DNA from: CAVSKL01 sp963728475 [NCBI: Candidatus Eiseniibacteriota bacterium]
Lineage (GTDB): Bacteria > Eisenbacteria > RBG-16-71-46 > JABDJR01
Direction: 5' to 3'
Assembly (NCBI GenBank): GCA_963728475.1
Contig: CAVSKL010000001.1
Span: 620,001 to 684,000 of the forward strand
Length of the DNA: 64,000 bases
The position numbers and the translations under genes were made by a program. A model generated the notes under the pieces. That model worked only from the letters and a program-made list of their open reading frames with translations. It had not been told where the DNA came from and did no database searches. Shown here in pieces: positions 25,602 to 63,802 of this stretch (position 1 is its first letter; each line of letters begins with the position of its first letter).

Positions 25602-25832
25602 TCATACCAGGAGCGCCCGGATCTCCTCGGGCGAGAGCACCCGCCCCGAGGACTTCACCACCCCGTCCACCGCCAGCCCCGGTGTCATCATCACCCCCAG
25701 GGCCACGATGCGGTCGATGTCGGTGACCTTCTCGATCTCGGCCTCGGTTCCCATTTCCCGGAGCGCGGTTTCCACGTTCCGCGCCAACTTCAGGCAGCTC
25801 GGGCACCCGGTGCCCAGAATCTGGATCTTCAT
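25602..25832 (-). CDS. Small redox-active thioredoxin-like protein (TM0996/MTH895 type)
   Basis: 76-residue thioredoxin/glutaredoxin-fold protein with the active site GTGCPSCLKL (CPSC at about 10-13) and the cis-Pro region VMMTPGLAVDG. This short family commonly follows ArsP-type permeases and may deliver electrons or thiols to them or to ArsF. Its ATG overlaps the permease stop (ATGA), showing translational coupling. Cytoplasmic. Confidence 0.9.
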   Translation of the reverse strand: MKIQILGTGCPSCLKLARNVETALREMGTEAEIEKVTDIDRIVALGVMMTPGLAVDGVVKSSGRVLSPEEIRALLV

Positions 25833-27108
25833 CCCATCCTCCCGGGGCCGAACGCGGCCCCATAGATCCATCCGCTTACCGTGGCCATCGCCACCACCAG
25901 CGCCACGTAGACCACGGTCTTCCGCGTTCCGAGCACGCTCCGGAGCACCAGCATGTTGGGAAGGCTGAGCGCGGGCCCCGCGAGAAGCAGCGCCAGCGCC
26001 GGCCCCTTCCCCATCCCGCTCCCCAGGAGCCCCTGCAGGATCGGCACCTCGGTGAGGGTGGCGAAGTACATGAAGGCGCCGGCCACCGACGCGAACAGGT
26101 TCGCCCCCGGCGAGTTTCCGCCTACCGAGCCCGCCACCCACCGGGACGGGATGAGCCCCTCGTGACCGGGGCGCCCCAGGAGGAGCCCGGCCGCCAGCAC
26201 TCCCAGGAGCAACAGCGGCAGGATCTGCTTGGCGAACCCCCAGGACGACCCGAGCCAGGCCCGCGTCTCCTCGCGAGAGCGTCGCGACACCGCCACCGCC
26301 AGCGCGACCAGGAACGCGCCGGTGATCCACCACCGGGCGGCGTGGATCGCCGTCCATGCGCCGGCGCTCCCCGGGCCCGGCCGCGCCCAGTTGGCGAAGA
26401 TGAGGATTCCGAGCAGCGGGACCAGGAACCCGGCCGCGCTCCGGAGGGTGCCCCCCCGGCGTCGGGGAGAACCGCCGGCGCCGAACGCGCCCGCGCCGCC
26501 TCCTCGCGCCGGTAGATGAGGTGCATGAGCACGCCCACCACCACGCTGAACGCCACCGCCCCCACCGCCCGCGCCGCCCCGAGTTCCACTCCCAGCACCC
26601 GGGCGGTGAGAATCACCGCGAGCACGTTGATGGCGGGTCCGGAATAGAGGAAGGCGGTGGCGGGACCCAGCCCGGCCCCGCGCCGGTGGATGCTCGCGAA
26701 GAGCGGAAGGACGGTGCAGGAGCAGACGGCCAGGATCGTCCCCGAGACCGCGGCCACGGCGTAGGCGCGCACCCGGCCCGCCCCCGGCCCCAGGTACCGC
26801 ATGACCGAGGCCTGGCTCAGGAACACCCCGATCCCGCCCGCGATCAGGAACGCGGGGACCAGGCAAAGCAGCACGTGCTCCCGGGCGTACCAGTGGGCCA
26901 GTCCCAGGGATTCGTCGAGGGGACGCGGCAGGCGCTCGGCGCCGGCGGGAAGGAAGTAGAGGGCCAGAAAGAGCGCAACGATTGCCCCTCCCGCGAACCC
27001 ATCCGAACGGCGAAGCCCGCGGAGCCCGCGAATCGCGGAGCGCCCCGCTTCCGGCCATCGCCATCCCAACCCACCCCGGGGACCCGTCCCCGGAACCGCA
27101 CCCCGCAT
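25829..27108 (-). CDS. ArsP/COG0701-type permease, broken by a frameshift
   Basis: Membrane permease of the ArsP-like family (organoarsenical efflux in characterised members). The first half runs in one frame from ATG 27106-27108 (GGAGG just upstream, inside the arsR end): hydrophobic segments, then AVCSCTVLPLFASIHRRGAG and GPATAFLYSGPAINVLAVIL. The second half is one frame over, from TLRSAAGFLVPLLGILIFANW to LPNMLVLRSVLGTRKTV and the stop at 25829-25831. The frames meet at a run of seven C (plus strand, 26451-26457); an eighth would join them to a protein of about 427 residues. It may be an assembly error, a recent inactivation, or a slippery phase-variable tract. Placed between arsR and the thioredoxin. 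Confidence 0.75.
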
Positions 27109-27113
27109 CGTCC

Positions 27114-27440
27114 TTACCTCCGCGCCTCCAGCGCTTCCTTCGCGTTCGCTTCCAGCACCGCTTCCACGCAGCCGAAGAAGTTGAGCACGCACGGCACCCG
27201 GAGCGAGTAGAAGACCTGGGCGCCGCGCTTCTCGTCCCGCACGAGCCCGGTGTGCTTGAGGAGCGCCAGGTGCTTGGACACGGTGGAGACGTCCGCCCCC
27301 ACCATGGCGGTGAGGTCGCACACGCAGCGCTCGCCGCGCGAGAGCTCTTCCACCAGGAACATCCGGGTGGGGTGGGCCAATGCCTTGAGAATTGCCGCCC
27401 GGTTCCGATATCGGTCCGGGCCGTGGTCGCCGTTTATCAT
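27114..27440 (-). CDS. arsR: ArsR/SmtB family repressor
   Basis: 108-residue winged-helix repressor. GERCVCDLTAMVGADVSTVSKHLALL holds the CVC motif (Cys39 and Cys41) at the start of the recognition helix region, the typical As(III)/Sb(III) site. It should repress the permease-thioredoxin-arsF-arsG genes that follow and be released by arsenicals. Its stop is five bases from the permease ATG, whose ribosome-binding site is within the arsR end. The ATG is directly next to a perfect operator and 6-7 bases past the predicted -10, so the mRNA may be leaderless. Confidence 0.93.
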   Translation of the reverse strand: MINGDHGPDRYRNRAAILKALAHPTRMFLVEELSRGERCVCDLTAMVGADVSTVSKHLALLKHTGLVRDEKRGAQVFYSLRVPCVLNFFGCVEAVLEANAKEALEARR

Positions 27441-27464
27441 TTGGCTATTTTACCAAATAGCCAA
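27441..27464 (-). promoter_or_regulatory. ArsR operator: perfect 10-bp inverted repeat
   Basis: Arms TTGGCTATTT (27441-27450) and AAATAGCCAA (27455-27464) are perfect complements separated by four bases. The operator directly abuts the arsR ATG and covers the -10 element and most of the spacer, so binding would block RNA polymerase. Confidence 0.85.
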
Positions 27465-27474
27465 GTTTTGTCAA
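27447..27474 (-). promoter_or_regulatory. arsR operon promoter
   Basis: On the minus strand TTGACA (27474-27469) and TAAAAT (27452-27447) are 16 bp apart. Transcription would begin at about 27440, the first base of the arsR ATG, so the transcript would have almost no leader. The -10 element is inside the operator. Confidence 0.75.
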
Positions 27475-27598
27475 GGAGCCGATTCGGCCGGGAACCGGAC
27501 CGCTCCGTGGCCGGGGGCGGGCGCTCGAACTACCAATTATATCAAACACTTACAAACTCGCGCCCACCCCCGTCGGATGCCTCCGGGATTCCCCCCCC

Positions 27599-27645: not shown

Positions 27646-28203
27646 TCAATCGTCGTCGGCCTCCCCCGGGGCCTCGGACGGGGCCGCCGCGACCGGGAGG
27701 GGGGCATCGGCGGGCGATCCGATCAACGCCTGGACCCCGAACTCGTGAACCAACCGGCCGCCGTTGTGGGCGGTGTTGACGAGCACCAGGCTCCCGGCGG
27801 CGTAGAAGACGAGAAACGCCAGGTTCAGGACCAGCGCCGGGGCGCGGTCGAGCCTCTTCCGGAAGAGGGCCGGGCCGAGCAGGATCACCGCGAAGATCAC
27901 GGTGAGGGCGGTGAACACGGTCCGGGTGGTCTCGGCCAGGCTCTCGTGGGTCTCGATCACCGCGTTCACCTGCGCGGTGCGGTCGGCCAGCTCCGCCGCG
28001 GCCTCGCCGGTGGGGACGGCCACGTAGGTGGCGGCGGTGCCGAGCGCCATCAGGATGAGGGCGGCGGCCAGGAACCCCCGTCCCGACTTCCGCACCAGGC
28101 CGAGGATCAGGAAGACCGGCGCCGTCAGGAGGAGCGCGATCGGGAAGTGCACGATGAGGGGATGGAGGGCGTCCCAGCTCGGAACGGGCGGAAGTCCAAA
28201 CAT
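27646..28203 (-). CDS. DUF2231 family membrane protein
   Basis: 185-residue membrane protein with four hydrophobic segments. The N-terminal HPLIVHFPIALLL (about residues 13-25), with two His before the first helix, is the signature of DUF2231, a family suggested to bind heme or work in redox membranes; its function is not established. The C-terminal tail is an Ala/Pro/Asp stretch. AAGGAGA lies upstream of the ATG at 28203. It follows the rubrerythrin gene by 69 bp with a strong hairpin between them and is probably in the same transcription unit. Confidence 0.85.
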   Translation of the reverse strand: MFGLPPVPSWDALHPLIVHFPIALLLTAPVFLILGLVRKSGRGFLAAALILMALGTAATYVAVPTGEAAAELADRTAQVNAVIETHESLAETTRTVFTALTVIFAVILLGPALFRKRLDRAPALVLNLAFLVFYAAGSLVLVNTAHNGGRLVHEFGVQALIGSPADAPLPVAAAPSEAPGEADDD

Positions 28204-28272: not shown

Positions 28273-28914
28273 TCAGCTCACCGTCTCGTACTTCTCCTTG
28301 GAGTTGAAGCAAGACACGCACTTCTCGAAGTCGAGGTTGGTGGTGGTGAAGCCGCAGACGCTGCACACGTAGAAGTCCGTCTTCGCCGTCCACGACCCGA
28401 GGTCCCCGGCCGCCTGGGCGTAGAGCTTGGCGTGCTCGGCCTCGGCCGTCTTGGCGAAGTTGAAGGTCCTGAGGGCGTCCTTGTTCTTCTCCGCCTTGGC
28501 CCGCTCGATGAACTCCGGATACATGGTGTCGCGCTCGTAGGTCTCGCCCTCGACCGCCGCCTGGAGGTTTTCCACGGTGGACTTCACCTCGGGCTTCACG
28601 ATCTCCGCCTTGGGCTCGCCCCCGAACTTCCTGATCACCTCGGCGTGGTTGCCGGCATGCACCTCCTCGGCCCGGGCGGCGGCGCGGAAGAGGCCGGCCG
28701 CGCCGGCGTAACCCTCGGAGTCGGCCTTGGCCGCGAAGGCGAGGTAGCGGGCGTGGGCATTGGACTCGCCGTTGAAGGCGGCCTGGAGGTTCTCCATGGT
28801 CTTGGCCGAGGCCTTGGCCTCCTTCTTGGCCGAGGCGGCGGTGGCCGCCGCGAGCCCCGTCCCCAGGACGAGGGCGAGGAACAACGAACGCTTGGCGAAC
28901 CGGGAAAGTCGCAT
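28273..28914 (-). CDS. Exported rubrerythrin
   Basis: 213-residue rubrerythrin, a di-iron protein that reduces hydrogen peroxide. It begins with a signal peptide (about 1-29, MRLSRFAKRS to ASA), unusual because most rubrerythrins are cytoplasmic. The ferritin-like domain contains the Glu/His ligand sets (NGESNAHARYLAFA at about 48, RAEEVHAGNH, EGETYERDTMYPEF, TAEAEHAKLY), and the C-terminal rubredoxin-like domain has CSVCGF and CVSC for one iron. The start at 28914 has GAAGGAGA upstream. A sigma-54 promoter and two upstream sites lie between it and the NtrC-type regulator gene, indicating inducible expression by that regulator. Confidence 0.92.
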   Translation of the reverse strand: MRLSRFAKRSLFLALVLGTGLAAATAASAKKEAKASAKTMENLQAAFNGESNAHARYLAFAAKADSEGYAGAAGLFRAAARAEEVHAGNHAEVIRKFGGEPKAEIVKPEVKSTVENLQAAVEGETYERDTMYPEFIERAKAEKNKDALRTFNFAKTAEAEHAKLYAQAAGDLGSWTAKTDFYVCSVCGFTTTNLDFEKCVSCFNSKEKYETVS

Positions 28915-28976
28915 GTGGGAATCTCCTTCTCCGCGGGCCGGTCCTCGGCCCGGAATACGTTCCGATCCGGTCACAC

Positions 28977-28992
28977 GCAACCGTCGTGCCAG
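28977..28992 (-). promoter_or_regulatory. Sigma-54 promoter of the rubrerythrin gene
   Basis: On the minus strand CTGGCACG (28992-28985) is followed at the right distance by TTGC (28980-28977), TGGCAC-N5-TTGC, matching the -24/-12 consensus at every core position. The start of transcription would be near 28965, giving a leader of about 50 nt. A six-base inverted repeat, CGTGCC/GGCACG, overlaps the -24 element. Confidence 0.85.
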
Positions 28993-29054
28993 TCCGGGAA
29001 GGCACGGCAACCCGTTGCGGGGCGGTCGCGCTCCCGCTCCACCGGCCGCGCGGC

Positions 29055-29102
29055 GTTCAAGAATTCGTACTCCGGGCAGCCGCCACGTTCGAGGATTCGT
29101 AC
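29055..29102 (-). promoter_or_regulatory. Two 16-bp sites, probable upstream activating sites for the NtrC-type regulator
   Basis: GTACGAATTCTTGAAC (29070-29055) and GTACGAATCCTCGAAC (29102-29087) are direct repeats on the minus strand with a 32-bp spacing, three helical turns. Each is an imperfect dyad (GTwC-A....T-GwAC). Centred about 97 and 130 bp before the predicted transcription start, they sit where enhancer-binding proteins act. Confidence 0.7.
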
Positions 29103-29121
29103 AGGGAGCGGGCGGCGGGCT

Positions 29122-30474
29122 TCAGATTCCGTACTTCTTGATCTTGTACGTCATGTCGCTCCGCGAGATCCCCAGCCGGCGGGCGGCCTGGGCTTGCACG
29201 CCGCCGGCGGCGCGCAACGCCCGGCGGATCATGTCCTGCTCCACCTCCTCCAGCGCCGTGCGGAGGTCGCCGCCGCGGCCGGAGTCCGGGGGAGGCGCCG
29301 GCGCTCCGCCGTCGGAGGCGAGCAGGAAGTCCTCGGGACCGATCTCGGGGCCTCGGGCGAGGATGCAGGCCCGCTCGATGAGGTTGCGCAGCTCCCTCAC
29401 GTTTCCCGGAAACCGGTAGGAGGCGAGCTTCTCGATCGCGGCGGGGCAAATGGTGCGGGGCTCGGTCTTGAGATCCACCGCCACCGCCCTGAGAAAGTGC
29501 TGAACCAGGAGAGGCAGGTCCCCCGGGCGTTCGCGAAGCGAGGGCACCGCCACCGGGACCACCGCCAGCCGGTAGTACAGGTCGTCCCGGAAGAGCCCTT
29601 CCTCCACCCGGGCGCGAAGATCGCGGTGGGTGGCGGCCAGGATCCGTACGTTCACGCGCCGGGGGGCGGTCGAGCCGAGCCGCACCACCTCGCCTTCCAC
29701 CAGGACCCTGAGAAGCTTCGCCTGAAGCGGCAGGGTCATCTCCGCCGCCTCGTCGAGGAACAGCGTCCCCTTGTCGGCGGCCTCGAACAGGCCCTGCCGG
29801 AGCCGGTCGGCGCCGGTGAACGCTCCCTTCTCGTGGCCGAAAAGCTCGCTGTCGAGAAGGGTCTCGGTGAAAGCGGCGCAGTTCACCGCCACGAACGGCT
29901 TCTCCGCCCGCGGGCTTCGCTCATGGATCGCGCGGGCCACCAGTTCCTTGCCGCTTCCGGTCTCCCCGGTGATGAGCACGGTCGCGCCGGTGGGGGCCAC
30001 GCGGTCGATCAGCTCCTGGAGCCGCCGCATGGCCGGGCTCTCCCCCACGATGTTCCCGCGCGCTCCGAGGCGGCTCACCGCCCCGCGCAGGGACGCGTTC
30101 TCGCGCAGAAGCTCGGTTCGCTCCAGCGCCCGGCGCACCACCACCCGGACCGCGTCCGGCTCGAACGGCTTGGGAATGAAGTCGAACGCCCCCCGCCGCA
30201 TCGCCTCCACCGCCAGCTCCACGGTGGTGTGGGCGGTGATCACCACCGTCGAGAGGGTGGGATCGAGCTCCCGGGCGGTGTCCAGGAGCGCCAGCCCCTC
30301 CCCGTCCGGCATGCGCTGGTCGGTCACCACCAGGTCGAAGGGCGCCCGTGCCATCTCCCGGCGCGCCGCTTCCACCCCCGAGGCCTCGGTCACCGCGTGA
30401 CCGCTCTCCTTGAGGATCATGCCCAGGATCCGCCGCATCCCCGCCTCGTCGTCCACCACCAGGATCCTCGCCAT
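29122..30474 (-). CDS. NtrC-family sigma-54-dependent response regulator
   Basis: 450-residue bacterial enhancer-binding protein. The receiver domain has DD at 8-9 and the phospho-acceptor Asp52 (VVTDQRMPDGEG). The AAA+ domain has Walker A GETGSGKE (170-177), the sigma-54-contacting loop GAFTGA (217-222), and GTLFLDEAAEM as Walker B. The C-terminal Fis-type helix-turn-helix ends KYGI. It is encoded directly after its histidine kinase (TAG and ATG are adjacent), so they are a two-component pair. The two repeats in the gap before the rubrerythrin gene are its most likely binding sites, which would make the rubrerythrin its local target. The signal is unknown. Confidence 0.93.
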   Translation of the reverse strand: MARILVVDDEAGMRRILGMILKESGHAVTEASGVEAARREMARAPFDLVVTDQRMPDGEGLALLDTARELDPTLSTVVITAHTTVELAVEAMRRGAFDFIPKPFEPDAVRVVVRRALERTELLRENASLRGAVSRLGARGNIVGESPAMRRLQELIDRVAPTGATVLITGETGSGKELVARAIHERSPRAEKPFVAVNCAAFTETLLDSELFGHEKGAFTGADRLRQGLFEAADKGTLFLDEAAEMTLPLQAKLLRVLVEGEVVRLGSTAPRRVNVRILAATHRDLRARVEEGLFRDDLYYRLAVVPVAVPSLRERPGDLPLLVQHFLRAVAVDLKTEPRTICPAAIEKLASYRFPGNVRELRNLIERACILARGPEIGPEDFLLASDGGAPAPPPDSGRGGDLRTALEEVEQDMIRRALRAAGGVQAQAARRLGISRSDMTYKIKKYGI

Positions 30475-31809
30475 CTACCCGCCCCCTTCCGCCGCCCCCG
30501 GCAGCGTCATCTCGAACCGGGTTCGTCCCGGCTCGTTCGCGGCCAGCCAAAGGTCCCCGCCGTGGGCGCGGGCGATATTGCGCGCCACCGCCAGCCCCAG
30601 TCCCGTCCCCCGCGGCTTGGTGGTGAAGAACGGCTCGAACAGCCGGTCCACCGTAGAGGGAGGGAGCGGCTCGCCCGGGTTCTCCACCCAGAGAACCAGG
30701 GTTTCGCCGGTTCTCTCCCCTCCCACCGTGACGGTGGCTCCTTCCGGCGACGCCTCGAAGGCGTTCAGCACCAGGTTCAAGAGGGCCTGGTGGACCTGGA
30801 ACGGGTCCACCCGGACCGGGCCGTCTCCGGCCGCCTTCACCGCCAGATCGAGCCCGCGCTCCGCGGCCCGCGCCCGGGCCACCGCGGTGAGGTACTCCAG
30901 CACCTCCCGGAGCGGGATCTCCTTGCGCTCGGGGTCGCGGATCCGGGCGTAGGCCAGGAAGTCGGTGGTGAGCTTCTCCAGGCGCCGGGCCTCCCCGAGC
31001 ACGATCCGCCGCATCTCCTCCGGCTGCGCCCCGTCCTCCGCCGGGTCCCCGGCCGGGAGGCCCAGGAGCCGGGCCGAACTCAAGATCATCGCCACCGGGT
31101 TCCGGATCTCGTGGGCGATGGCGCTGGAGAGCCGCCCCACCGCCGCCAGCTTCTCCTCTTCCACCAGCCGGTCCCGGGTCCGTTCCAGCTCGGCCAGACT
31201 CCGCTCCAGGCGCGCAGTGTCGCGGCGGTGCTGATCGGAAAAGAACCCGACCACCGCCCCCACCACCGCATAGATGAGGATGATGGTGGCCGCTTCGTAG
31301 AACTCGATGGGTCTGAGCGGGGGATGGGCCCGGTAATAGATGCCGAGCTCCAAGAAAGTGAGCACGGCGGCGCAGGCCACCACCAGGACGACCCCGGCGC
31401 GGCGGAAGCGGAAGGCGGCGGCCACGATGGGCATGAGCATGAGCACGGCGTAGTGGGCGTCCTCGAACCCCCCCACCACCGCGATCAGAAAGGCGAAGCC
31501 CAGCTTGAACCAGACCGAGACCACCGGGTAGGCCCGAAGCGCCGCGGGGTGGAATTGCGCCCCCCGGCCCTGGAGCGCGGTCAGTTCCACGGTCTGGATG
31601 AAGAAGAAGACCGCGATGGCGGCGAACGCCTGGCGGGAGGGCACGCCGAGAACGGAGCTGAATCCCAGGTGGACCAGGAGCAGCGCGGCCAAGACCACCA
31701 GGTTGAGCCCGATCAGGATCGATTCCTGGCGCCGGAACCGGGCGAACTCGCCCGGCGCTCCCGCGGCGGCAGCGGGAGGATAGAGCACCCGGTCCAAGGT
31801 CTGGGTCAT
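30475..31809 (-). CDS. Membrane sensor histidine kinase
   Basis: 444-residue sensor kinase. The first 190 residues hold about six hydrophobic segments and no obvious periplasmic sensing domain, so the signal is probably sensed in or near the membrane. The dimerisation box has the phospho-accepting His233 (SSAIAHEIRNPVA). The ATPase domain shows the N box (LLNLVLNAFEASPEG), G1 (VENPGEP in place of DNGxG), the F box (LFEPFFTTKPRGTGLGLAVA) and G2. The ORF extends upstream to 31986 but ATG 31807-31809 begins the natural N-terminus (MTQTLDRVLY). Partner of the downstream NtrC-type regulator. Confidence 0.92.
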   Translation of the reverse strand: MTQTLDRVLYPPAAAAGAPGEFARFRRQESILIGLNLVVLAALLLVHLGFSSVLGVPSRQAFAAIAVFFFIQTVELTALQGRGAQFHPAALRAYPVVSVWFKLGFAFLIAVVGGFEDAHYAVLMLMPIVAAAFRFRRAGVVLVVACAAVLTFLELGIYYRAHPPLRPIEFYEAATIILIYAVVGAVVGFFSDQHRRDTARLERSLAELERTRDRLVEEEKLAAVGRLSSAIAHEIRNPVAMILSSARLLGLPAGDPAEDGAQPEEMRRIVLGEARRLEKLTTDFLAYARIRDPERKEIPLREVLEYLTAVARARAAERGLDLAVKAAGDGPVRVDPFQVHQALLNLVLNAFEASPEGATVTVGGERTGETLVLWVENPGEPLPPSTVDRLFEPFFTTKPRGTGLGLAVARNIARAHGGDLWLAANEPGRTRFEMTLPGAAEGGG

Positions 31810-55544: not shown

Positions 55545-55741
55545 TCAGCATCGGCAGCCCGGATTCGGACCCGCCAATCGTCATCGAAGGGAACGTGATT
55601 GAGGACAACTACTGCTCGCGAAACTCCGGCGGGATCAATATCGGAGCCCCCTGCATCATCCAGGACAACGTGATCCGGGGGAACTCGACCGGGAAAGGGG
55701 ACGGGGGAGGTGTGTACCTCATCGGCGATGTGGGAAAGGTC
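55545..55741 (+). pseudogene. Remnant of a beta-helix gene
   Basis: Frame reading AAISIGSPDSDPP then IVIEGNVIEDNYCSRNSG and CIIQDNVIRGNST up to VYLIGDVGKV, about 80 percent alike at the nucleotide level to 57606-57795 of the next beta-helix gene. Both ends are missing: no start upstream, and after VGKV the sequence turns into the leader of the next gene. A decayed copy or silent donor segment. Confidence 0.7.
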
Positions 55742-55922
55742 ACGGGGTTGCCCGGCCGTTGCTTGGTCCACCACCACTTGGGGGAGGCCAACGATAGGAC
55801 AATGACCCCAAGCCCCACGCAGCCGGGGATGGGTAGGCCGAACAAAAGCAGGAGGCCGGGGAGGTAACAAGCAGGCAAGCCGGTACGCTCCCCGGTCCCC
55901 GTGACCAGAAAGGAGACCGGCC

Positions 55923-56223
55923 ATGAGAACCATAGCCGTTCTGTTCCTGGTCCTTGTTGCCCTTGGCGGGGCAACCCTCGCGGCGGATGCTACCACGTAC
56001 CAGGTTCCATCGCCATATAGGAACGTGTCCTACGCCATGTCGCTTGCGTCGTCGGGCGACCTGATCCTCGTGTCGGACGCCTCGCAGGGAACCCCGACAG
56101 CGCCTACTCCGACACATTCACGGTGAAGTCGGGGGTCCGGGTCGTGGCCAAGAGCGGCCAGACCCCGATCATCGACGGGGGCAGCCTCCGTGCCACGGCG
56201 GTGGCCTTCGCGCCCAGTTCCGA
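55923..56223 (+). pseudogene. Frameshifted 5' end of a beta-helix protein gene (copy A1)
   Basis: Begins like the intact gene at 61143 (MRTIAVLFLVLVALGGATLA, signal peptide, then YQVPSPYRNVSYAMSLASSG) with the same upstream leader and GAGACC site. At 56088 the sequence CAGGGAACC lacks one G present in CAGGGGAACC of the 61143 copy, so the frame breaks; shifted homology continues (VKSGVRVVAKSGQTPIID...FAP) to about 56223. After that it joins a different sequence. Confidence 0.78.
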
Positions 56224-57743
56224 CGCGGGTGCGCCAAGCTTGGAAGGCACCTGCCGCGCGCGGTGTGCCGATCCCCTCGGCGTGTTTCCGAATTGTCAGA
56301 GGAAAACCCTTGAACCAGGTCGCCCGCGGGACTATAAGTGAGGGCGTTACGTTGCGCCCCCGGGGGGCGATCTCACCCCACATCTGAGCCCTCCCTCAAC
56401 TTGGAGACCCCCTCGCCGCGGCCGCCGTCGGTTGGCACACTCGGGAAAGAAGGTCGCATGCGTTCCTTTTCCCTCGTGCGACGGAGCGGACGAACGGGCT
56501 TTCCCCCTCCCTGGCTCGTCACCGCCGCCGCATCTTGTTGCAAGCTGGGACAGATCTTACGGCCGGTCTCCCGCATGCCGGCGGGCATGGTCGGAGCCGC
56601 TCTCGGGGAGCGGTGCGGCCCTGAGCGCCTGCGGCGCGGGCCGGGGTCCCACCGCCGCTCTTGCAGTCCTGGCGCGGAGCGACGCCTCCGCCGGCCCCCT
56701 TCCGGCGCTTCAGGGAGTGGGGCCCCCCGATTCTCCGAGGAGTCGCGCGCTCGGCGGACAGGCGCCCCCGACGCACGCCCGGCGCAGGTTCCGGTAGCGC
56801 GACTTCTCAACCTATTTGGCGTAGGGATATTCCTCGTTCTGGGCGCTTCATCCTGTGGACGGGGAGCGACCAAGCCGGGGAGCGCGCTTTGCCGGGTCAC
56901 GCCGGACACGCTGGACTTCGGGAGGGTCGAGCTTGGGGCGCGGGCGGTGCGCGCCATCACCGTCAAGGACGTGGGCAGTAATGGTTTCACCTCCGGGGCA
57001 CGCGCGGAAGGAGGCCCGTTCGTGATCCTGAGCGGCGGCGGACCGGTTTCCCTCGCGCCCGGGGACTCTCTGAAGATTCTGGTGGAGTACGCGCCGGAAG
57101 GGCGCGGCGCCGCCCGGGGCGTCGTGAGCCTGGGGGAACTTGCGTGCGGCAGCGTGCCGCTGGTGGGGAACGCATCCAGGACTTGGCGCGTTCGACCGGA
57201 CGGGACCGGGGATGCGCCGACGGTGCAGGCGGGGATCGACAGCTCGGAGGACGGCGACGTGGTGCTGGTGGGTCCGGGGACCTACTACGAGAACATCAAC
57301 CTTCGGGGGAAGGCGATTCACCTCCTGGGGGAGAAGGGGCCGGAGGTGACGGTGCTGGATGGCAGCCGGGAGGACTCGACCGTTGTCAACTGCGAGTCGG
57401 GGGAAACCAATGACACCATCATTGAGGGGTTTACGATCACGGGAGGGAGGGGGTGGACGCCTCTAGGGGACACCACCACCAAAGCTGGTGGCGGCATTAG
57501 TTGCTACCACTCGACTCCCATAATACGAAACAACGTAATTCGCGACAATCAGGCTCTAAATGATCCCAGAGGAGGGAACTCACGAGGAGGGGCTATCAAC
57601 ATCGGATCACGTGGGGCATCCCAACCCATGATCGTGGAGGGGAACATCATCGAAGGCAACTACTGTTCACGGAATTCCGGAGGAATCAACATTGCAGGTC
57701 CCTGCATCATCCAGGACAACGTGATTCGGGGGAACTCGACGGG
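56064..57743 (+). repeat. Long direct repeat, copy 1 (identical partner at 58678)
   Basis: About 1680 bp nearly identical to 58678-60357, offset 2614 bp. It covers the end of the broken A1 gene, a non-coding stretch and the first 60 percent of the 56458 gene. Substitutions are few by eye, apart from one cluster at 57301-57349. Both sides then diverge abruptly. Confidence 0.9.
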
Positions 57744-58404
57744 GACTGGGGACGGCGGTGGTCTCTACCTGCTCGGAGACGTTGGGAGAGTCATCATCCG
57801 ACGGAACCTGATCGTTGAAAACCACGCCGCAGACCATGGGGGCGGAATCTACATCGGTACGTTTCTGGCCTCGGCTGGCATGACGGAGATTTCCCAGAAC
57901 GTCATTCTGCGCAATACCGCCATGGGAAGGGATGGCGGGGCCGATTGTTCCGGGGCCGGGATGTGGATCGGAGGAGGGGCACTTACGACCCAGAACACGA
58001 TTGAATTCAACCATGCTGAAAACTTGGGAGTGGTCCCCGCGGGGGGCGGCTGTTGCCTCGAGAACTCCGTGCCCGGCACGTCGGTCAGGCTGACTATCTT
58101 CTACGCAAACGTGGGCGGCGGCCTGGTAGCAACGGAAGCGGCGGAAGGCGAGGAGGGAGACAACATCATCTTCGGAAACAGTTCCCCGGGTTTCTTCGTG
58201 GCGCAGAGCACACACATCGACCAAGAAGGAGACTTCCGTGTGGATCCGTTGTTCTGTGACACAACCGCCACGAGTGCCGGGCGGCTGCGCGAGAACTCGC
58301 CCGCCTTCGGCTTGGTGGGGGACGTGATCGGAGCCGTGCCCACCCCGGGCTGTGCCGGAGGCAACTCGATCCCGTCAAGTAGTCCTACAGGAAGGCGGCA
58401 ATAG
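56458..58404 (+). CDS. Beta-helix surface lipoprotein, copy 1 (start uncertain)
   Basis: 648 residues from the ATG at 56458 (AAGAAGG upstream). A lipobox-like ILVLGASSCGRG places the Cys at about residue 133, so the true start may be further in, but no ATG, GTG or TTG lies in frame close to it; the first 115 residues may be untranslated or a non-standard extension. After an Ig-like (ASH/choice-of-anchor D) domain (LCRVTPDTLDFGRVELGARAV to VEYAPEGRGAA) comes a parallel beta-helix (GDAPTVQAGIDSSEDGDVVL, then repeated NNVIRDN, GNIIEGN). The 3' third is not shared with copy 2. Function: surface adhesin or carbohydrate binder, inferred. Confidence 0.72.
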   Translation: MRSFSLVRRSGRTGFPPPWLVTAAASCCKLGQILRPVSRMPAGMVGAALGERCGPERLRRGPGSHRRSCSPGAERRLRRPPSGASGSGAPRFSEESRARRTGAPDARPAQVPVARLLNLFGVGIFLVLGASSCGRGATKPGSALCRVTPDTLDFGRVELGARAVRAITVKDVGSNGFTSGARAEGGPFVILSGGGPVSLAPGDSLKILVEYAPEGRGAARGVVSLGELACGSVPLVGNASRTWRVRPDGTGDAPTVQAGIDSSEDGDVVLVGPGTYYENINLRGKAIHLLGEKGPEVTVLDGSREDSTVVNCESGETNDTIIEGFTITGGRGWTPLGDTTTKAGGGISCYHSTPIIRNNVIRDNQALNDPRGGNSRGGAINIGSRGASQPMIVEGNIIEGNYCSRNSGGINIAGPCIIQDNVIRGNSTGTGDGGGLYLLGDVGRVIIRRNLIVENHAADHGGGIYIGTFLASAGMTEISQNVILRNTAMGRDGGADCSGAGMWIGGGALTTQNTIEFNHAENLGVVPAGGGCCLENSVPGTSVRLTIFYANVGGGLVATEAAEGEEGDNIIFGNSSPGFFVAQSTHIDQEGDFRVDPLFCDTTATSAGRLRENSPAFGLVGDVIGAVPTPGCAGGNSIPSSSPTGRRQ

Positions 58405-58533
58405 GCTTTCTTGCCTCCCCTTGGCCGGGGGCAGGAAGATGGCGATAAGGCCAAGAAGGCGGGGGCGGGGCGGTGCCACGCTGACCGGCGAGATGCACCG
58501 CCTCACGCCCCCATACCAGAGAGGAGGCTGGCG

Positions 58534-58837
58534 ATGAAAGCCACCTTGATCTCCGCCCTGGTGCTGATCCTCCTGGGAGGACCCGCGACAGGGATTGTAC
58601 AGGCAAACACCATTACAGTTCCATCCTACCGAAAGACGGTCTCCCTGGCCATGCCGCTGGCAGCGTCCGGCGATACCATCCTCGTGTCGGACGCCTCGCA
58701 GGGAACCCCGACAGCGCCTACTCCGACACCTTCACGGTGAAGTCGGGGGTCCGGGTCGTGGCCAAGAGCGGCCAGACCCCGATCATCGACGGGGGCAGCC
58801 TCCGTGCCACGGCGGTGGACTTCGCGCCCAGTTCCGA
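58534..58837 (+). pseudogene. Frameshifted 5' end of a beta-helix protein gene (copy A2)
   Basis: Starts at ATG 58534 with a strong GAGAGGAGG site and its own signal peptide (MKATLISALVLILLGGPATG), then AMPLAASGDTILVSDASQG. From 58678 it is identical to copy A1 including the missing G in CAGGGAACC, so it is also broken. A single duplication can explain the shared frameshift. Confidence 0.78.
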
Positions 58838-60357
58838 CGCGGGTGCGCCAAGCTTGGAAGGCATCTGCCGCCCGCGGTGTGCCGATCCCCTCGGCGTGTT
58901 TCCGAATTGTCAGAGGAAAACCCTTGAACCAGGTCGCCCGCGGGACTATAAGTGAGGGCATTACGTTGCGCTGCCGGGGGGCGAACTCACCCCACATCTG
59001 AGCCCTCCCTCAACTTGGAGACCCCCTCGCCGCGGCCGCCGTCGGTTGGCACACTCGGGAAAGAAGGTCGCATGCGTTCCTTTTCCCGCGTGCGACGGAG
59101 CGGACGAACGGGCTTTCCCCCTCCCTGGCTCGTCACCGCCGCCGCATCTTGTTGCAAGCTGGGACAGATCTTACGACCGGTCTCCCGCATGCCGGCGGGC
59201 ATGGTCGGAGCCGCTCTCGGGGAGCGGTGCGGCCCTGAGCGCCTGCGGCGCGGGCCGGGGTCCCACCGCCGCTCTTGCAGTCCTGGCGTGAAGCGACGCC
59301 TCCGCCGGCCCCCTTCCGGCGCTTCAGGGAGTGGGGCCTCCCGATTCTCCGAGGAGTCGCGCGCTCGGCGGACAGGCGCCCCCGACGCACGCCCGGCGCA
59401 GGTTCCGGTAGCGCGACTTCTCAAGCTATTTGGCGTAGGGATATTCCTCGTTCTGGGCGCTTCATCCTGTGGACGGGGAGCGACCAAGCCGGGGAGCGCG
59501 CTCTGCCGGGTCACGCCGGACACGCTGGACTTCGGGAGGGTCGAGCTTGGGGCGCGGGCGGTGCGCGCCATCACCGTCAAGGACGTGGGCAGTAATGGTT
59601 TCACCTCCGGGGCACGCGCGGAAGGAGGCCCGTTCGTGATCCTGAGCGGCGGCGGACCGGTTTCCCTCGCGCCCGGGGACTCTCTGAAGATTCTGGTGGA
59701 GTACGCGCCGGAAGGGCGCGGCGCCGCCCGGGGCGTCGTGAGCCTGGGGGAACTTGCGTGCGGCAGCGTGCCGCTGGTGGGGAACGCATCCAGGACTTGG
59801 CGCGTTCGACCGGACGGGACCGGGGATGCGCCGACGGTGCAGGCGGGGATCGACAGCTCGGAGGACGGCGACGTGGTGCTGGTGGGTCCGGGGACCTACT
59901 ACGAGAACATCAACCTGGAAGGGAAGGCGATTCACCTGCTGAGCAAATCTGGCCCGGTCGTGACGGTGCTGGATGGCAGCCGGGAGGACTCGACCGTTGT
60001 CAACTGCGAGTCGGGGGAAACCAATGACACCATCATTGAGGGGTTTACGATCACGGGAGGGAGGGGGTGGACGCCTCTAGGGGACACCACCACCAAAGCT
60101 GGTGGCGGCATTAGTTGCTACCACTCGACTCCCATAATACGAAACAACGTAATTCGCGACAATCAGGCTCTAAATGGTCCCAGAGGAGGGAACTCACGAG
60201 GAGGGGCTATCAACATCGGATCACGTGGGGCATCCCAACCCATGATCGTGGAGGGGAACATCATCGAAGGCAACTACTGTTCACGGAATTCCGGAGGAAT
60301 CAACATTGCAGGTCCCTGCATCATCCAGGACAACGTGATTCGGGGGAACTCGACGGG
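58678..60357 (+). repeat. Long direct repeat, copy 2
   Basis: Partner of 56064-57743 at an offset of exactly 2614 bp with no net indel. Includes the end of copy A2, the non-coding stretch and the 5' part of the 59072 gene. The identity stops at GGAACTCGACGGG in both copies. Confidence 0.9.
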
Positions 60358-61021
60358 CACGGGGGATGGGGGGGGCCTCTACCTCCTCGGCACGGTGGGG
60401 CACGTCGTGATCCGGAGAAATCTAATCGTCGAGAACCACGCCATGGATCATGGGGGAGGGTTGTACCTTGCTGCAGACCTATTTGACCCGAGCCTAACGG
60501 ACATCTCGGACAACGTCATCTTAGACAACGTGGCATTGGGTCAAGACAGCGCCTTCGACAGCTCGGGGGGAGGTATCTTTCTCGACAACGAAGCCTATAT
60601 CCACAACAACACGATCGCCTTCAACCATGCCGGAAGCTCAAGGGGATATCTCCCCGGCGGCGGCATGGTCGTGCAGTACTGCTCCTCGGCCACCCGAATC
60701 GAATCCAACGTCATCTACGGAAACGGCGAAGGCGGGTTCGTCGCCGAACGCCGGGCCTCTTGCCAGGTGGTCCACAACCTCATCTACGGCAACGCGGTGA
60801 CCGACGTGGATCGCGACATGACGACGCACATCGACGTAACGGACAATCTCTTCGTCGATCCCCTCTTTTGCGACACCACCGCAGCTAGCACCGGCGCTCT
60901 GGCCGCCAACTCGCCGGCCTTGACCGCTGGCTCCGGCGTGATCGGCGCGGTGGCGGAGCCGGGTTGCTCCACTGCGGCGAGGGTTATCAGTTTCCGGGGG
61001 AGGGCAGCCATGGCCCAGTGA
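59072..61021 (+). CDS. Beta-helix surface lipoprotein, copy 2 (start uncertain)
   Basis: 649 residues from ATG 59072. Same layout as copy 1: N-terminal extension, lipobox-like GASSCGRG, ASH domain and the first turns of a parallel beta-helix, nearly identical through residue about 428. After that the helix turns differ (NNTIAFNHAGSSRGYLPGG, ESNVIYGNGEGGFVAE, FVDPLFCDTTAAS). The same doubts on the start apply. The few differences before the lipobox (Leu/Arg, Ala/Val, Asn/Lys) all change the protein, which argues that this stretch may not be translated. Precedes the 61143 gene by 121 bp. Confidence 0.72.
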   Translation: MRSFSRVRRSGRTGFPPPWLVTAAASCCKLGQILRPVSRMPAGMVGAALGERCGPERLRRGPGSHRRSCSPGVKRRLRRPPSGASGSGASRFSEESRARRTGAPDARPAQVPVARLLKLFGVGIFLVLGASSCGRGATKPGSALCRVTPDTLDFGRVELGARAVRAITVKDVGSNGFTSGARAEGGPFVILSGGGPVSLAPGDSLKILVEYAPEGRGAARGVVSLGELACGSVPLVGNASRTWRVRPDGTGDAPTVQAGIDSSEDGDVVLVGPGTYYENINLEGKAIHLLSKSGPVVTVLDGSREDSTVVNCESGETNDTIIEGFTITGGRGWTPLGDTTTKAGGGISCYHSTPIIRNNVIRDNQALNGPRGGNSRGGAINIGSRGASQPMIVEGNIIEGNYCSRNSGGINIAGPCIIQDNVIRGNSTGTGDGGGLYLLGTVGHVVIRRNLIVENHAMDHGGGLYLAADLFDPSLTDISDNVILDNVALGQDSAFDSSGGGIFLDNEAYIHNNTIAFNHAGSSRGYLPGGGMVVQYCSSATRIESNVIYGNGEGGFVAERRASCQVVHNLIYGNAVTDVDRDMTTHIDVTDNLFVDPLFCDTTAASTGALAANSPALTAGSGVIGAVAEPGCSTAARVISFRGRAAMAQ

Positions 61022-61142
61022 TCCCCTGGCCCCCCACGGCCGGGGTTGGGTAGGCCGGAGAGAGGCAGGAGGCCGGGGCGGCGACGTGCAGGCAAGCAAC
61101 TTCGACCGCCTCCGGCCCCCGTAACCAGAAAGGAGACCGGCC

Positions 61143-63802
61143 ATGAGAACCATAGCCGTTCTGTTCTTGGTCGTTACCGCCCTGTGCGGGGCGGCCCTCG
61201 TAGCGGATGCTACCACGTACCAGGTTCCATCGCCATATAGGAACGTGTCCTACGCCATGTCGCTTGCGTCGTCGGGCGACCTGATCCTCGTGTCGGACGC
61301 CTCGCAGGGGAACCCCGACAGCGCCTACGCCGACGCTTTCGCGGTGAAGTCGGGGGTCCGGGTCGTGGCCAAGAGCGGCCAGACCCCCATCATCGACGGG
61401 GGCAGCCTCCGTGCCACGGCGGTGGCCTTCGCGCCCGGCGCCTCGTCGAGCACGATCTTCCAGGGGTTCACGATCCGCGGAGGCACGGACACCGTGGTGG
61501 TGGTGAGGGGAAGCGGGACCATTCGGGACTGCACCATCAGCGACATTTCGAGCACCATCCCGCCCTACGGCAGCGCGGGGATCCACATCGAGGGGGACGG
61601 CAGCGTCAAGCACTGCACGATCTCGATGACGAAGCACGTTAACGCCGGGATCAGAGCGCTGGGACCGATCCTGGTCGATAGCTGCACGGTCGAGACGAAC
61701 AGCGTCAATGGCCCCTCCGACGGATTCTTCCTCCAGGAATCCGGCGGTACGCCGGACCTCCAGCACAGCTCGGTCACCGGGGCCGGGGCCGGGCTCAACA
61801 ACGGGGTGCTCGCGGAAGGGACGGTGACCGTTGAGAACTGCGACGTGGGCCCGACGAACCCCAGCTCGTCGTGCAACGGCTTCGCGTTCGACGACGGGAG
61901 CCCGACGATGAGCGACTGCTCTATCACTCTTCCCGATGGCATCGGGGTCGAGAGCGGATGGCAGGGTAACGCTACCACCCTGACGATGGCCGATTGCACC
62001 ATCGATGTGGACTATGGTACCGGGATTGATTGTGAGGTAGGATCGGTATCTGGATTCAATACCGTCGTCACCATTCACGAAGCAGACACGTACAACACCG
62101 GCATCCAGGTTGCAACGTCGAGTGGGCCGAACGTGTCGACGGTGAAGGGTGTCTTGGTCCGTGGACTGACGCACTACGGCGCCGGGGTTGACGTCTTCGA
62201 CGGCGGCGCGGTGATCGAGAACGTGACCGTGGATGGATTCGAGCTGGGCTTCTACGACAGCAACCATGGCTTGGTCAAGAACACGGTTCAGAATTGCATC
62301 GCCAGCAACTACGGCAACGTGGGGTTCGACTACGTGACGGCGGCCTACTGCATCGCCGATGGCAGCGGGTCGGGGCCTTCCCGGTGGCCTGCATGTACGG
62401 GACGCTGGCCCGTGACTCGGAGTACGAGGAGGGCGGGACCCTGGACTTCCCGGGCGACCTGACCATCCCCTCCGGCAAGTCCCTCACCCTCTGGGGCGGG
62501 ACCAACGTCTCGATCTCCACCAGCGATTCCCAGAGCGGCGGAAACAACACGGGAAAGGTGGAGCTGCTGGCTTCCGGCTCGCTGGCCCTGGCCGGGAGCG
62601 AGGGCGATTCGGTGGTCTTCGCGTCCAACGCGGCCTCGCCGGGGGAATACGACTGGGAGGGCATCCTCTCATCGAACGACCTGGCCCTCGCCTATGCCCG
62701 CATCCAGAACGCGAAGTACGGCGTCCACGTCGGCCTGGTGGGAAGCAGCGTCTCGATCTCGCATTGCCGGTTCCAGGACAACGACACCGCCGACATCCTC
62801 GCGACGACGAGCGATTCGTCGGCGACGGTGTCCATCACCAACAACGTCCTCGACGTGGGCGGTGGCAAGGGGATCGACTTCCAGAAGCCGAAGGGGACCA
62901 TCTCCGGGAACACGGTGACCGGGAACGGTTCGACGAACGCCGGGATCTACCTGGCCCAGTACTACGACCATGCCTCGGTGACCGGCAATACCGTGTCCGG
63001 GGACGGTTCGGGGTATGGGATCCAGATCGCCGAAGGATATCCGACCGTCACCGGGAACGCGGTGGATGACTGGCACTACGCCGTCTACCTCACGGGCGGC
63101 ACCGCCAGGATCGGGACCGGCGGGGGCGCCGATCCGAACGTGCTGACCGGTAGCACGCGCGGGATCAGCACCTACTGCACGGGCCCCGGATCGTGCCCGG
63201 GCTGCGGCTCCTTCCTCCCCGTGATCCGCCACAACCGGATCCACGGCAACTACGACGGTGTGGTCGCCGAGAGGCGCGCCTTCATCGACCTGGGCAGGGC
63301 GGGAGACGAGGGGAACAACGACATCTACGACAACACCAACTACTGCCTCTGGAACCGGTCGACCTGTAGCGACGTGATGACGGCATCCGGGAACTACCTC
63401 GGCTCCTGCAGCGGCGGGTACCCGGACATCTGCTGGGAAGGGGACGTCGAGCTCGACTCCTTGGCGTGCTCGCAGGTCGCCTCGGCGGACGCGGCGATCG
63501 AGAGGGTGACGGCGAGCGTGGGGCCCCACCTCCTGGGCCTCCGGCCGAATCCCATGAGGAGCGGCACCGCCATTCGGTTCCAGCTCGTGGGGCAGCCCGG
63601 GGAGGTCGGAATCCGGATCTTCGACGTGGCCGGCCGGGCGATCCGGACCTTCACCAAGCAGAACTACTCCGCCGGCACCCATGAGGTGGCGTGGGACGGC
63701 CGCGACGACCGCGGGGCGCCCGTGCAGGCCGGGATCTACTTCGTCCGCATGGCGACCGGCCGGACGAACGCGCAAACCCTGAAAGCGCTGGTCTTGCGCT
63801 GA
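61143..63802 (+). CDS. Secreted beta-helix protein with C-terminal FlgD-like sorting domain, frameshifted
   Basis: A signal peptide (MRTIAVLFLVVTALCGAALV, about 1-22) is followed by a parallel beta-helix of many turns. At 62372-62375 the frame changes: the G run in TCGGGGCC seems one short, ending one frame at 62460-62462 while the next frame continues from VACMYGTLARDSEYEEGGTL to the stop at 63802. Joined, the protein has about 886 residues. The C-terminal 80 residues (LLGLRPNPMRSGTAIRFQL to GIYFVRMATGRTNAQTLKALV) form the FlgD-like/T9SS-type domain typical of exported FCB proteins. A surface protein; ligand unknown. The only array member whose 5' end is unbroken. Confidence 0.8.

What the first reader, a model, noticed from the sequence alone, without database searches (positions are those of the whole stretch)
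28273..31809. A complete readable circuit: histidine kinase and NtrC-type regulator controlling an exported rubrerythrin through sigma-54
Between the NtrC-family gene (its GAFTGA loop is intact) and a rubrerythrin with a signal peptide lies TGGCAC-N5-TTGC on the minus strand, ideal for sigma-54, and two 16-bp dyads 32 bp apart placed 97 and 130 bp before the start site. Sigma-54 control of a periplasmic peroxide-reducing rubrerythrin by an adjacent two-component system is, to my knowledge, not an established arrangement. The DUF2231 gene follows in the same unit and could be a heme or redox partner.
Basis: partly seen in the sequence, partly recalled or inferred. Interest (0 to 1): 0.82.

Follow-up and report, generated by a model that had tools for sequence, protein, structure and literature searches.

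The report
Sigma-54 switch for exported rubrerythrin
A membrane sensor and its partner regulator appear to switch on an exported peroxide-destroying enzyme through a special promoter, and the same DNA switch lies beside relatives of this sensor in several bacterial phyla, which points to an undescribed control of redox defence at the cell envelope.

Summary
Kinase, NtrC-type regulator, exported rubrerythrin (Rbr) and DUF2231 lie in that order on the minus strand. An exact TGGCAC-N5-TTGC stands 77 bp before the Rbr start, with two 16-bp dyads, 32 bp apart, upstream. In 20 other Rbr loci with this kinase beside them, the window's dyad motif recurs in 17 (about 1.3 expected) and a -24/-12 element with at most two mismatches in 19. 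A matrix built there found the switch near the pair in 14 of 21 newly fetched loci; 278 kb without the kinase gave none. Dyad spacings fall at 20-22 or 29-34 bp (two or three helical turns). All 33 kinase-bearing genomes tested have sigma-54. Where Rbr is absent, the switch can precede a CCP/MauG-family protein, RND efflux or menaquinone genes. The sensor model resembles the 6TM domain of adenylyl cyclases; DUF2231 has four invariant histidines, probably at the periplasmic face. Binding, signal and electron donor are inferred. Parts are known kinds; I found no report of this circuit in the library held.

The parts
30475..31809 (-). sensor histidine kinase: 6TM membrane domain, HisKA, HATPase
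   Evidence: Pfam HisKA and HATPase_c, no Pfam match in the membrane part; six-helix model, pLDDT 80
29122..30474 (-). NtrC-type sigma-54 activator (receiver, AAA+ with GAFTGA, Fis-type HTH); abuts the kinase gene
   Evidence: Pfam; sequence
29087..29102 (-). distal operator dyad GTACGAATCCTCGAAC
   Evidence: conserved in related loci
29055..29070 (-). proximal operator dyad GTACGAATTCTTGAAC
   Evidence: conserved in related loci
28977..28991 (-). -24/-12 sigma-54 promoter TGGCACGACGGTTGC; predicted start site near 28965
   Evidence: conserved
28273..28914 (-). exported rubrerythrin, 213 aa
   Evidence: Pfam Rubrerythrin; presumed iron ligands conserved; nearest solved structure nigerythrin
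27646..28203 (-). DUF2231 membrane protein, 185 aa
   Evidence: Pfam PF09990; His 14, 19, 86, 153 invariant in 34 of 34; four-helix model

Best explanation
A dedicated envelope-redox two-component circuit. The 6TM kinase reads a signal in the inner membrane (guess: a lipophilic or quinone-linked redox signal) and phosphorylates the adjacent NtrC-type regulator (inferred). Two regulator dimers bind the paired 16-bp operators on one face of the DNA, two or three helical turns apart (inferred from conserved sequence and phasing). The assembled activator opens sigma-54 RNA polymerase at the -24/-12 promoter (site shown, activity inferred), so that exported rubrerythrin and DUF2231 are made together. 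Rubrerythrin reduces peroxide in the periplasm (family knowledge). DUF2231 is proposed to hand it electrons from membrane quinol through histidine-bound haem, since the usual NADH-linked donors are cytoplasmic (guess).
For: Gene order kinase-regulator-Rbr-DUF2231 in L001 and L003-L007. Window motif in 17 of 20 other kinase-adjacent Rbr loci; -24/-12 within one mismatch in 14 and within two in 19 of 20. Held-out loci: module or operator pair near the pair of genes in 14 of 21; background 278,120 bp in 22 loci: 0 and 0. Spacings 20-22 or 29-34 bp, one of 51. Sigma-54 in 33 of 33 genomes tested. The same operators beside the kinase in loci without Rbr, so they follow the regulator. Export or lipobox signals on Rbr homologues, by eye. 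Invariant histidines of DUF2231. Rbr-DUF2231 adjacent also without the kinase in L002 and L008.
Against: No binding or expression data. A stricter rule (promoter, two good operators, fixed spacing) is met in only 9 of 23 regions, though in 0 of 1000 shuffles of each. L072 has no good -24/-12; seven of 21 held-out loci and L075, L076, L078, L079, L084 show no module near the genes, L075 only a weak pair. The -24/-12 of the later Rbr loci has two to four mismatches. Fold evidence for the sensor is moderate (Foldseek E 0.29 at best) and for DUF2231 uninformative. The fourth rubredoxin cysteine is lost in 11 of 30 homologues.
Confidence: 0.78

Rival explanations
1. The pair is a general envelope or metal-stress system (in the manner of CusSR/HprSR) and rubrerythrin is one recruited target; the signal is metal or thiol stress.
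For: RND efflux genes follow the module in L073, L074, L130; in E. coli a metal two-component system drives both copper efflux and periplasmic repair (PMC9302797, passages).
Against: Rbr with DUF2231 is the commonest neighbour: 20 of 47 loci fetched by the kinase, against RND genes recognised in a few; menaquinone genes and a CCP/MauG protein are not metal targets.
Confidence: 0.3
2. The signal is falling oxygen or an over-reduced quinone pool rather than peroxide; rubrerythrin is made ahead of need when oxygen is low.
For: In Acidobacterium capsulatum rbr rose as oxygen fell (PMC11636273, passage; whether that rbr belongs to this system was not checked). Menaquinone genes are targets in L080 and L081.
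Against: No inducer data for this system.
Confidence: 0.35
3. Promoter and dyads are chance matches in GC-rich DNA.
For: One exact -24/-12 match arises in about 10 of 100 shuffles of a window this size.
Against: Conservation of motif, place and phasing; held-out loci; none in background.
Confidence: 0.02
4. DUF2231 is not an electron carrier but a metal-binding membrane protein or an assembly factor for rubrerythrin.
For: Invariant histidines can bind metal as well as haem; no fold match to a cytochrome b stood out.
Against: An exported rubrerythrin needs a donor; cytochrome b561 lies next to DUF2231 in L133.
Confidence: 0.4

Closest known systems
NtrBC/AtoSC/ZraSR-type two-component systems with sigma-54
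   Same: Kinase plus receiver-AAA-Fis regulator; best NCBIfam models NtrC, AtoC, NtrX, ZraR
   Different: Below every equivalog cut-off among the 25 models shown; operator GTnCnA-N4-TnGnAC; 6TM sensor; target rubrerythrin
E. coli MsrPQ with HprSR/CusSR
   Same: Two-component control of a periplasmic redox enzyme and its membrane partner, tied to RND copper efflux (PMC9302797, passages)
   Different: MsrP is not a rubrerythrin; that HprR and CusR are not sigma-54 activators is recalled
Nigerythrin / rubrerythrin of Desulfovibrio vulgaris
   Same: Closest solved relative (1yux, E 1.5e-33); iron ligands kept
   Different: 126 bits against the nigerythrin cut-off of 340, 83 against the rubrerythrin cut-off of 200; exported
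6TM receptor domain of adenylyl cyclases and CqsS
   Same: Sensor model aligns best to AC9, AC5, ImcA, AC8 (AC9: Z 14.6, rmsd 3.4, 169 residues; best other row 8.9)
   Different: No significant Foldseek E; linked to an NtrC-type regulator; ligand unknown

Membership tests
NtrC-family sigma-54 activator | Receiver, sigma-54 AAA+ domain and Fis-type HTH, GAFTGA loop | tested here: met
   Pfam calls above cut-off; GAFTGA in the translation
NtrC, AtoC, NtrX or ZraR proper | NCBIfam equivalog cut-off | tested here: not met
   438 against 558.6, 438 against 714, 390 against 600, 380 against 760 bits
sigma-54 promoter | TGGCAC-N5-TTGC with GG and GC fixed, upstream activator sites | tested here: met
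   conserved
sigma-54 promoter | Transcription depends on rpoN | not testable with these tools
   needs an experiment; rpoN is present in 33 of 33 related genomes tested, the window's own genome is not held
Rubrerythrin | Ferritin-like domain with diiron ligands and a rubredoxin-like domain | tested here: met
   Pfam; E50, E83, H86, E124, E127, E158 in 30 of 30, H161 in 29; window has C184, C187, C199, C202
Nigerythrin (equivalog) | NCBIfam cut-off of 340 bits | tested here: not met
   126 bits
DUF2231 | Pfam PF09990 | tested here: met
   49.2 bits against 26.4
b-type haem quinol oxidoreductase (like MsrQ or cytochrome b561) | Paired His binding haem, quinol oxidation | not testable with these tools
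   only conserved His and a four-helix model
Adenylyl cyclase / CqsS 6TM receptor domain | Six-helix fold of this family | tested here: inconclusive
   AC rows lead the VIA list (Z 14.6 to 9.9), but helical bundles can reach about 13 by common arrangement, and Foldseek E is 0.29 at best

The most novel reading that the evidence does not exclude
A phylum-spanning circuit that does for the periplasm what OxyR or PerR do inside the cell: an adenylyl-cyclase-type 6TM receptor kinase reads the quinone pool or a lipophilic redox signal and, through sigma-54, turns on interchangeable envelope outputs (rubrerythrin, CCP/MauG-family protein, menaquinone synthesis, metal efflux); DUF2231 is a new haem-b quinol:rubrerythrin oxidoreductase.
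Probability: 0.28. Interest if true: 0.85.

Novelty: new variant of a known kind. Interest (0 to 1): 0.64.

Why it matters
Rubrerythrins are mostly studied as cytoplasmic enzymes with NADH-linked donors. An exported form under a sigma-54 two-component switch, with a constant membrane partner, would define an envelope redox defence in little-studied phyla, give DUF2231 a testable function, offer a bacterial system for asking what 6TM cyclase-type receptors sense, and supply an operator code that predicts targets in uncultured bacteria.

Tried and rejected
Chance origin of promoter and dyads was rejected. Filing the regulator as NtrC, AtoC, NtrX or ZraR proper, and Rbr as nigerythrin, was rejected on cut-offs. 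Nothing came of Rfam and tRNA scans of the window, the kinase in plasmids, Rbr in plasmids beyond two weak matches, PHROGs for DUF2231, or Foldseek and VIA-align for DUF2231 (designed bundles, apolipoprotein, oxidase subunit III; no family stands out). The kinase was not seen in 240 genomes of the phylum of L012's genome (no positive control there). Literature searches of the held library, each seen as a listing unless stated: rubrerythrin with sigma-54 (8 papers; passages of PMC5701242), with DUF2231 (none), with two-component, periplasm and NtrC (4 papers), 'periplasmic rubrerythrin' (none), DUF2231 with heme (1 paper), Desulfovibrio sigma-54 regulon, signal peptide and export, Acidobacteria. 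Not every listed paper was opened and subscription papers are not held, so absence from print is only as good as these searches. The window's phylum could not be fixed: no genome is held; FlgD-like C-termini near 63.7 kb suggest an FCB-like host (recalled resemblance, not tested).

Limits of the counts: the operator matrix was built from 35 sites picked by me in the Rbr loci, window included, so its scores there are not independent; the fair tests are the window-only motif and the 21 later loci. L003/L004, L065-L067 and L069-L071 are close relatives, so independent lineages are fewer than the counts.
Full report
OBSERVATION. The four genes lie head to tail on the minus strand: kinase 31809-30475, regulator 30474-29122, rubrerythrin (Rbr) 28914-28273, DUF2231 28203-27646. 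The regulator has receiver, sigma-54 AAA+ and Fis-type HTH domains with GAFTGA intact. Rbr begins MRLSRFAKRSLFLALVLGTGLAAATAASA, an export signal by eye. Between regulator and Rbr stand GTACGAATCCTCGAAC (29102-29087), GTACGAATTCTTGAAC (29070-29055) and TGGCACGACGGTTGC (28991-28977). The last is the only exact TGGCAC-N5-TTGC in the window; 0.10 expected, 10 of 100 shuffles have one or more. The two dyads are the best operator-like sites of the window by a matrix that includes them (18.8 and 16.8; next 11.4 and 9.0).

GENES ELSEWHERE. A scan with Rbr of one genome per species gave 28 loci. Six (L001 Hydrogenedentota; L003-L007 Acidobacteria and Pyrinomonadaceae) have kinase-regulator-Rbr-DUF2231 in the window's order; L003's kinase is cut by the stretch and L007's regulator match is in two pieces. 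L002 and L008 have Rbr-DUF2231 without an adjacent kinase; the other 20 show no such pair next to Rbr. L002's genome does hold the kinase elsewhere (L075). The kinase's membrane domain, without a Pfam match, was then used as marker. At E <= 1e-25 it was found in 19 of 396 genomes of the phylum of L004 (Acidobacteria), 8 of 68 of L001 (Hydrogenedentota), 3 of 297 of L010 (Desulforhabdus), 1 of 40 of L008 (BRC1), 0 of 240 of L012, 3 of 13 in the class of L004 (all seen before) and 24 of 150 in the order of G397. Of 26 loci first fetched by the kinase (L059-L074, L076-L085), 14 hold Rbr and DUF2231, one DUF2231 alone, 11 neither. Of 21 fetched later (L113-L133), 6 hold both, 4 DUF2231 alone, one (L123) Rbr alone about 4 kb past the regulator, 10 neither. 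In L068, L072, L114-L116, L120 and L122 the order is Rbr-DUF2231-kinase-regulator, so that the promoter may also feed its own regulator.

THE SWITCH ELSEWHERE. With the motif of the window alone (GTWCRA-N4-TYGWAC), 17 of 20 other kinase-adjacent Rbr loci reach 10 or more of 12 positions; the shuffle probabilities sum to about 1.3. L005, L006 and L063 do not, nor do L002 and L008. The -24/-12 element is within one mismatch in 14 of 20, within two in 19; L072 has three. A strict rule of my own for the full arrangement is met in 9 of 23 regions and in none of 1000 shuffles of each. A matrix of 35 sites from these loci was then applied to the 21 later loci: module near kinase-regulator in 12, operator pair in 11, either in 14; none near L113, L117, L118, L119, L121, L123, L126 (L118 and L121 are short contigs). 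In the earlier 34 loci, which include the training sites, the figures are 26 and 27. Background, 278,120 bp in 22 loci without an adjacent kinase: 0 and 0. Far from the genes: 5 modules and 4 pairs in 102,674 bp of the later loci (the modules all in L114, L116, L120, at one shared place that looks like a further target) and 1 module in 194,214 bp of the earlier ones. Pair spacing was left free up to 60 bp, yet falls at 20-22 or 29-34 bp, save one of 51 that involves a third site: two or three helical turns, as two dimers on one DNA face would need. All seven later Rbr loci have paired sites 21-22 bp apart before Rbr (weaker member 8.1 to 13.3), with -24/-12 elements of two to four mismatches that keep GG and GC. 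Sigma-54 is encoded in 33 of 33 kinase-bearing genomes tested.

OTHER TARGETS. Beside the kinase in loci without adjacent Rbr the module precedes: outer-membrane efflux, adaptor and CusA/CzcA-like genes (L073, whose RND fragment scores 665 against a cut-off of 701; L074 by resemblance; efflux protein in L130); radical-SAM menaquinone genes (L080, L081: one MqnC above cut-off, two MqnE-like below); a sigma-70 region 4 protein (L082); a ketosynthase-like gene and a diiron desaturase-like gene (L083; a similar ketosynthase in L085); a CCP_MauG protein with a haem-binding neighbour (L130; CCP_MauG also in L131, same genome; Pfam far above cut-off, nearest NCBIfam models MbnH and MauG below theirs, so peroxidase activity is not certain); small exported proteins with a BON protein (L127; L128 by resemblance). 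In L133 an exported protein, DUF2231 and a cytochrome b561 follow. In L064, L113 and L119 a multihaem-like cytochrome gene diverges from the kinase, with no module between (Pfam run for L064 only). So the operator goes with the regulator, not with rubrerythrin, and several outputs concern the envelope or redox chemistry.

PROTEINS. Presumed iron ligands of Rbr are conserved in 30 homologues (H161 once Gln). The fourth rubredoxin cysteine is Cys in 19, Ser in 6, Asp in 5. Six homologues (L005-L007, L059-L061) show a lipobox by eye. The nearest solved structure is nigerythrin. In DUF2231, His 14, 19, 86 and 153 are invariant in 34 of 34 and His 146 is kept in 31. In a four-helix model (pLDDT 77.6) they fall at the starts of helices 1 and 3 and near the end of helix 4, thus at one face; basic loops 1-2 and 3-4 would make that face periplasmic by the positive-inside rule (inference). 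The sensor model (pLDDT 80) aligns best to adenylyl cyclase 6TM domains and ImcA (AC9: Z 14.6, rmsd 3.4, 169 residues; AC5 13.8; ImcA 12.6 with rmsd 8.2; AC8 9.9), above the best other row (8.9); Rv1625c is at 8.1. Foldseek gives no E below 0.29, and helical bundles can reach Z 13 by arrangement alone, so this is a lead. 6TM modules of this design can be receptors: that of the CqsS kinase made a cyclase respond to the autoinducer CAI-1 (PMC4821796, abstract and section 9; PMC12414865, passages).

MECHANISM. Shown: gene order; promoter and paired operators; their conservation, place and phasing; sigma-54 in related genomes. Inferred: phosphotransfer, binding, activation. Guessed: the signal (quinone or lipophilic redox, from the 6TM sensor and the menaquinone and peroxidase-like targets) and DUF2231 as electron carrier (histidines, constant partner, need for a donor outside the cytoplasm). 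The nearest functional parallel is E. coli MsrPQ under HprSR and CusSR with the Cus efflux pump (PMC9302797, passages).

LITERATURE. In the library held, no paper has both rubrerythrin and DUF2231 or the phrase 'periplasmic rubrerythrin'. Eight have rubrerythrin and sigma-54 (listing; PMC5701242, passages: no such link made there). A 2025 multi-phylum study of sigma-54 regulons shows no rubrerythrin in the listing and no Acidobacteria, 'peroxid' or menaquinone in its text, though it names peroxiredoxin in one cluster (PMC12316311). In Acidobacterium capsulatum rbr was transcribed more as oxygen fell (PMC11636273, passage); whether that gene belongs to this system was not checked.

Noticed in passing
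window 27114-27480 and 25602-27064: ArsR-family gene (Pfam HTH_5) with a sigma-70-like promoter (11 of 12) over a perfect 10-4-10 dyad TTGGCTATTT-TACC-AAATAGCCAA (27441-27464), followed by an ArsP-type permease and a thioredoxin-like gene: probably a separate arsenic or redox unit that ends the Rbr-DUF2231 unit (dyad by eye, below the length limit).
   Followed up: partly
window 55570-61440: Repeated DNA about 2.6 kb apart, including two near-identical 688- and 689-aa ORFs that look like beta-helix proteins; each copy carries TGGCACGGAGGCTGC on the minus strand (58809, 56195, 61416), which follows from the repeat and not from regulation.
   Followed up: partly
L005-L007, L059, L060 (Asp) and L065-L067, L069-L071 (Ser), end of Rbr: The fourth cysteine of the rubredoxin-like site is replaced by Asp or Ser in 11 of 30 homologues, in two lineages, while the other three stay: natural variants of the iron site.
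   Followed up: partly
L114 1153-1316, L116 685-844, L120 756: A second divergent operator-promoter module some kilobases before Rbr, shared by three genomes; in L114 a UspA-like ORF follows (by eye): a candidate further target.
   Followed up: partly
L007 5362-6667: The regulator match falls in two pieces (residues 1-176 and 226-450), so the gene may be interrupted or the sequence faulty there.
   Followed up: no
L064, L113, L119, upstream of the kinase: A divergent multihaem-like cytochrome c gene adjoins the kinase in three genomes without a recognisable module between them.
   Followed up: partly
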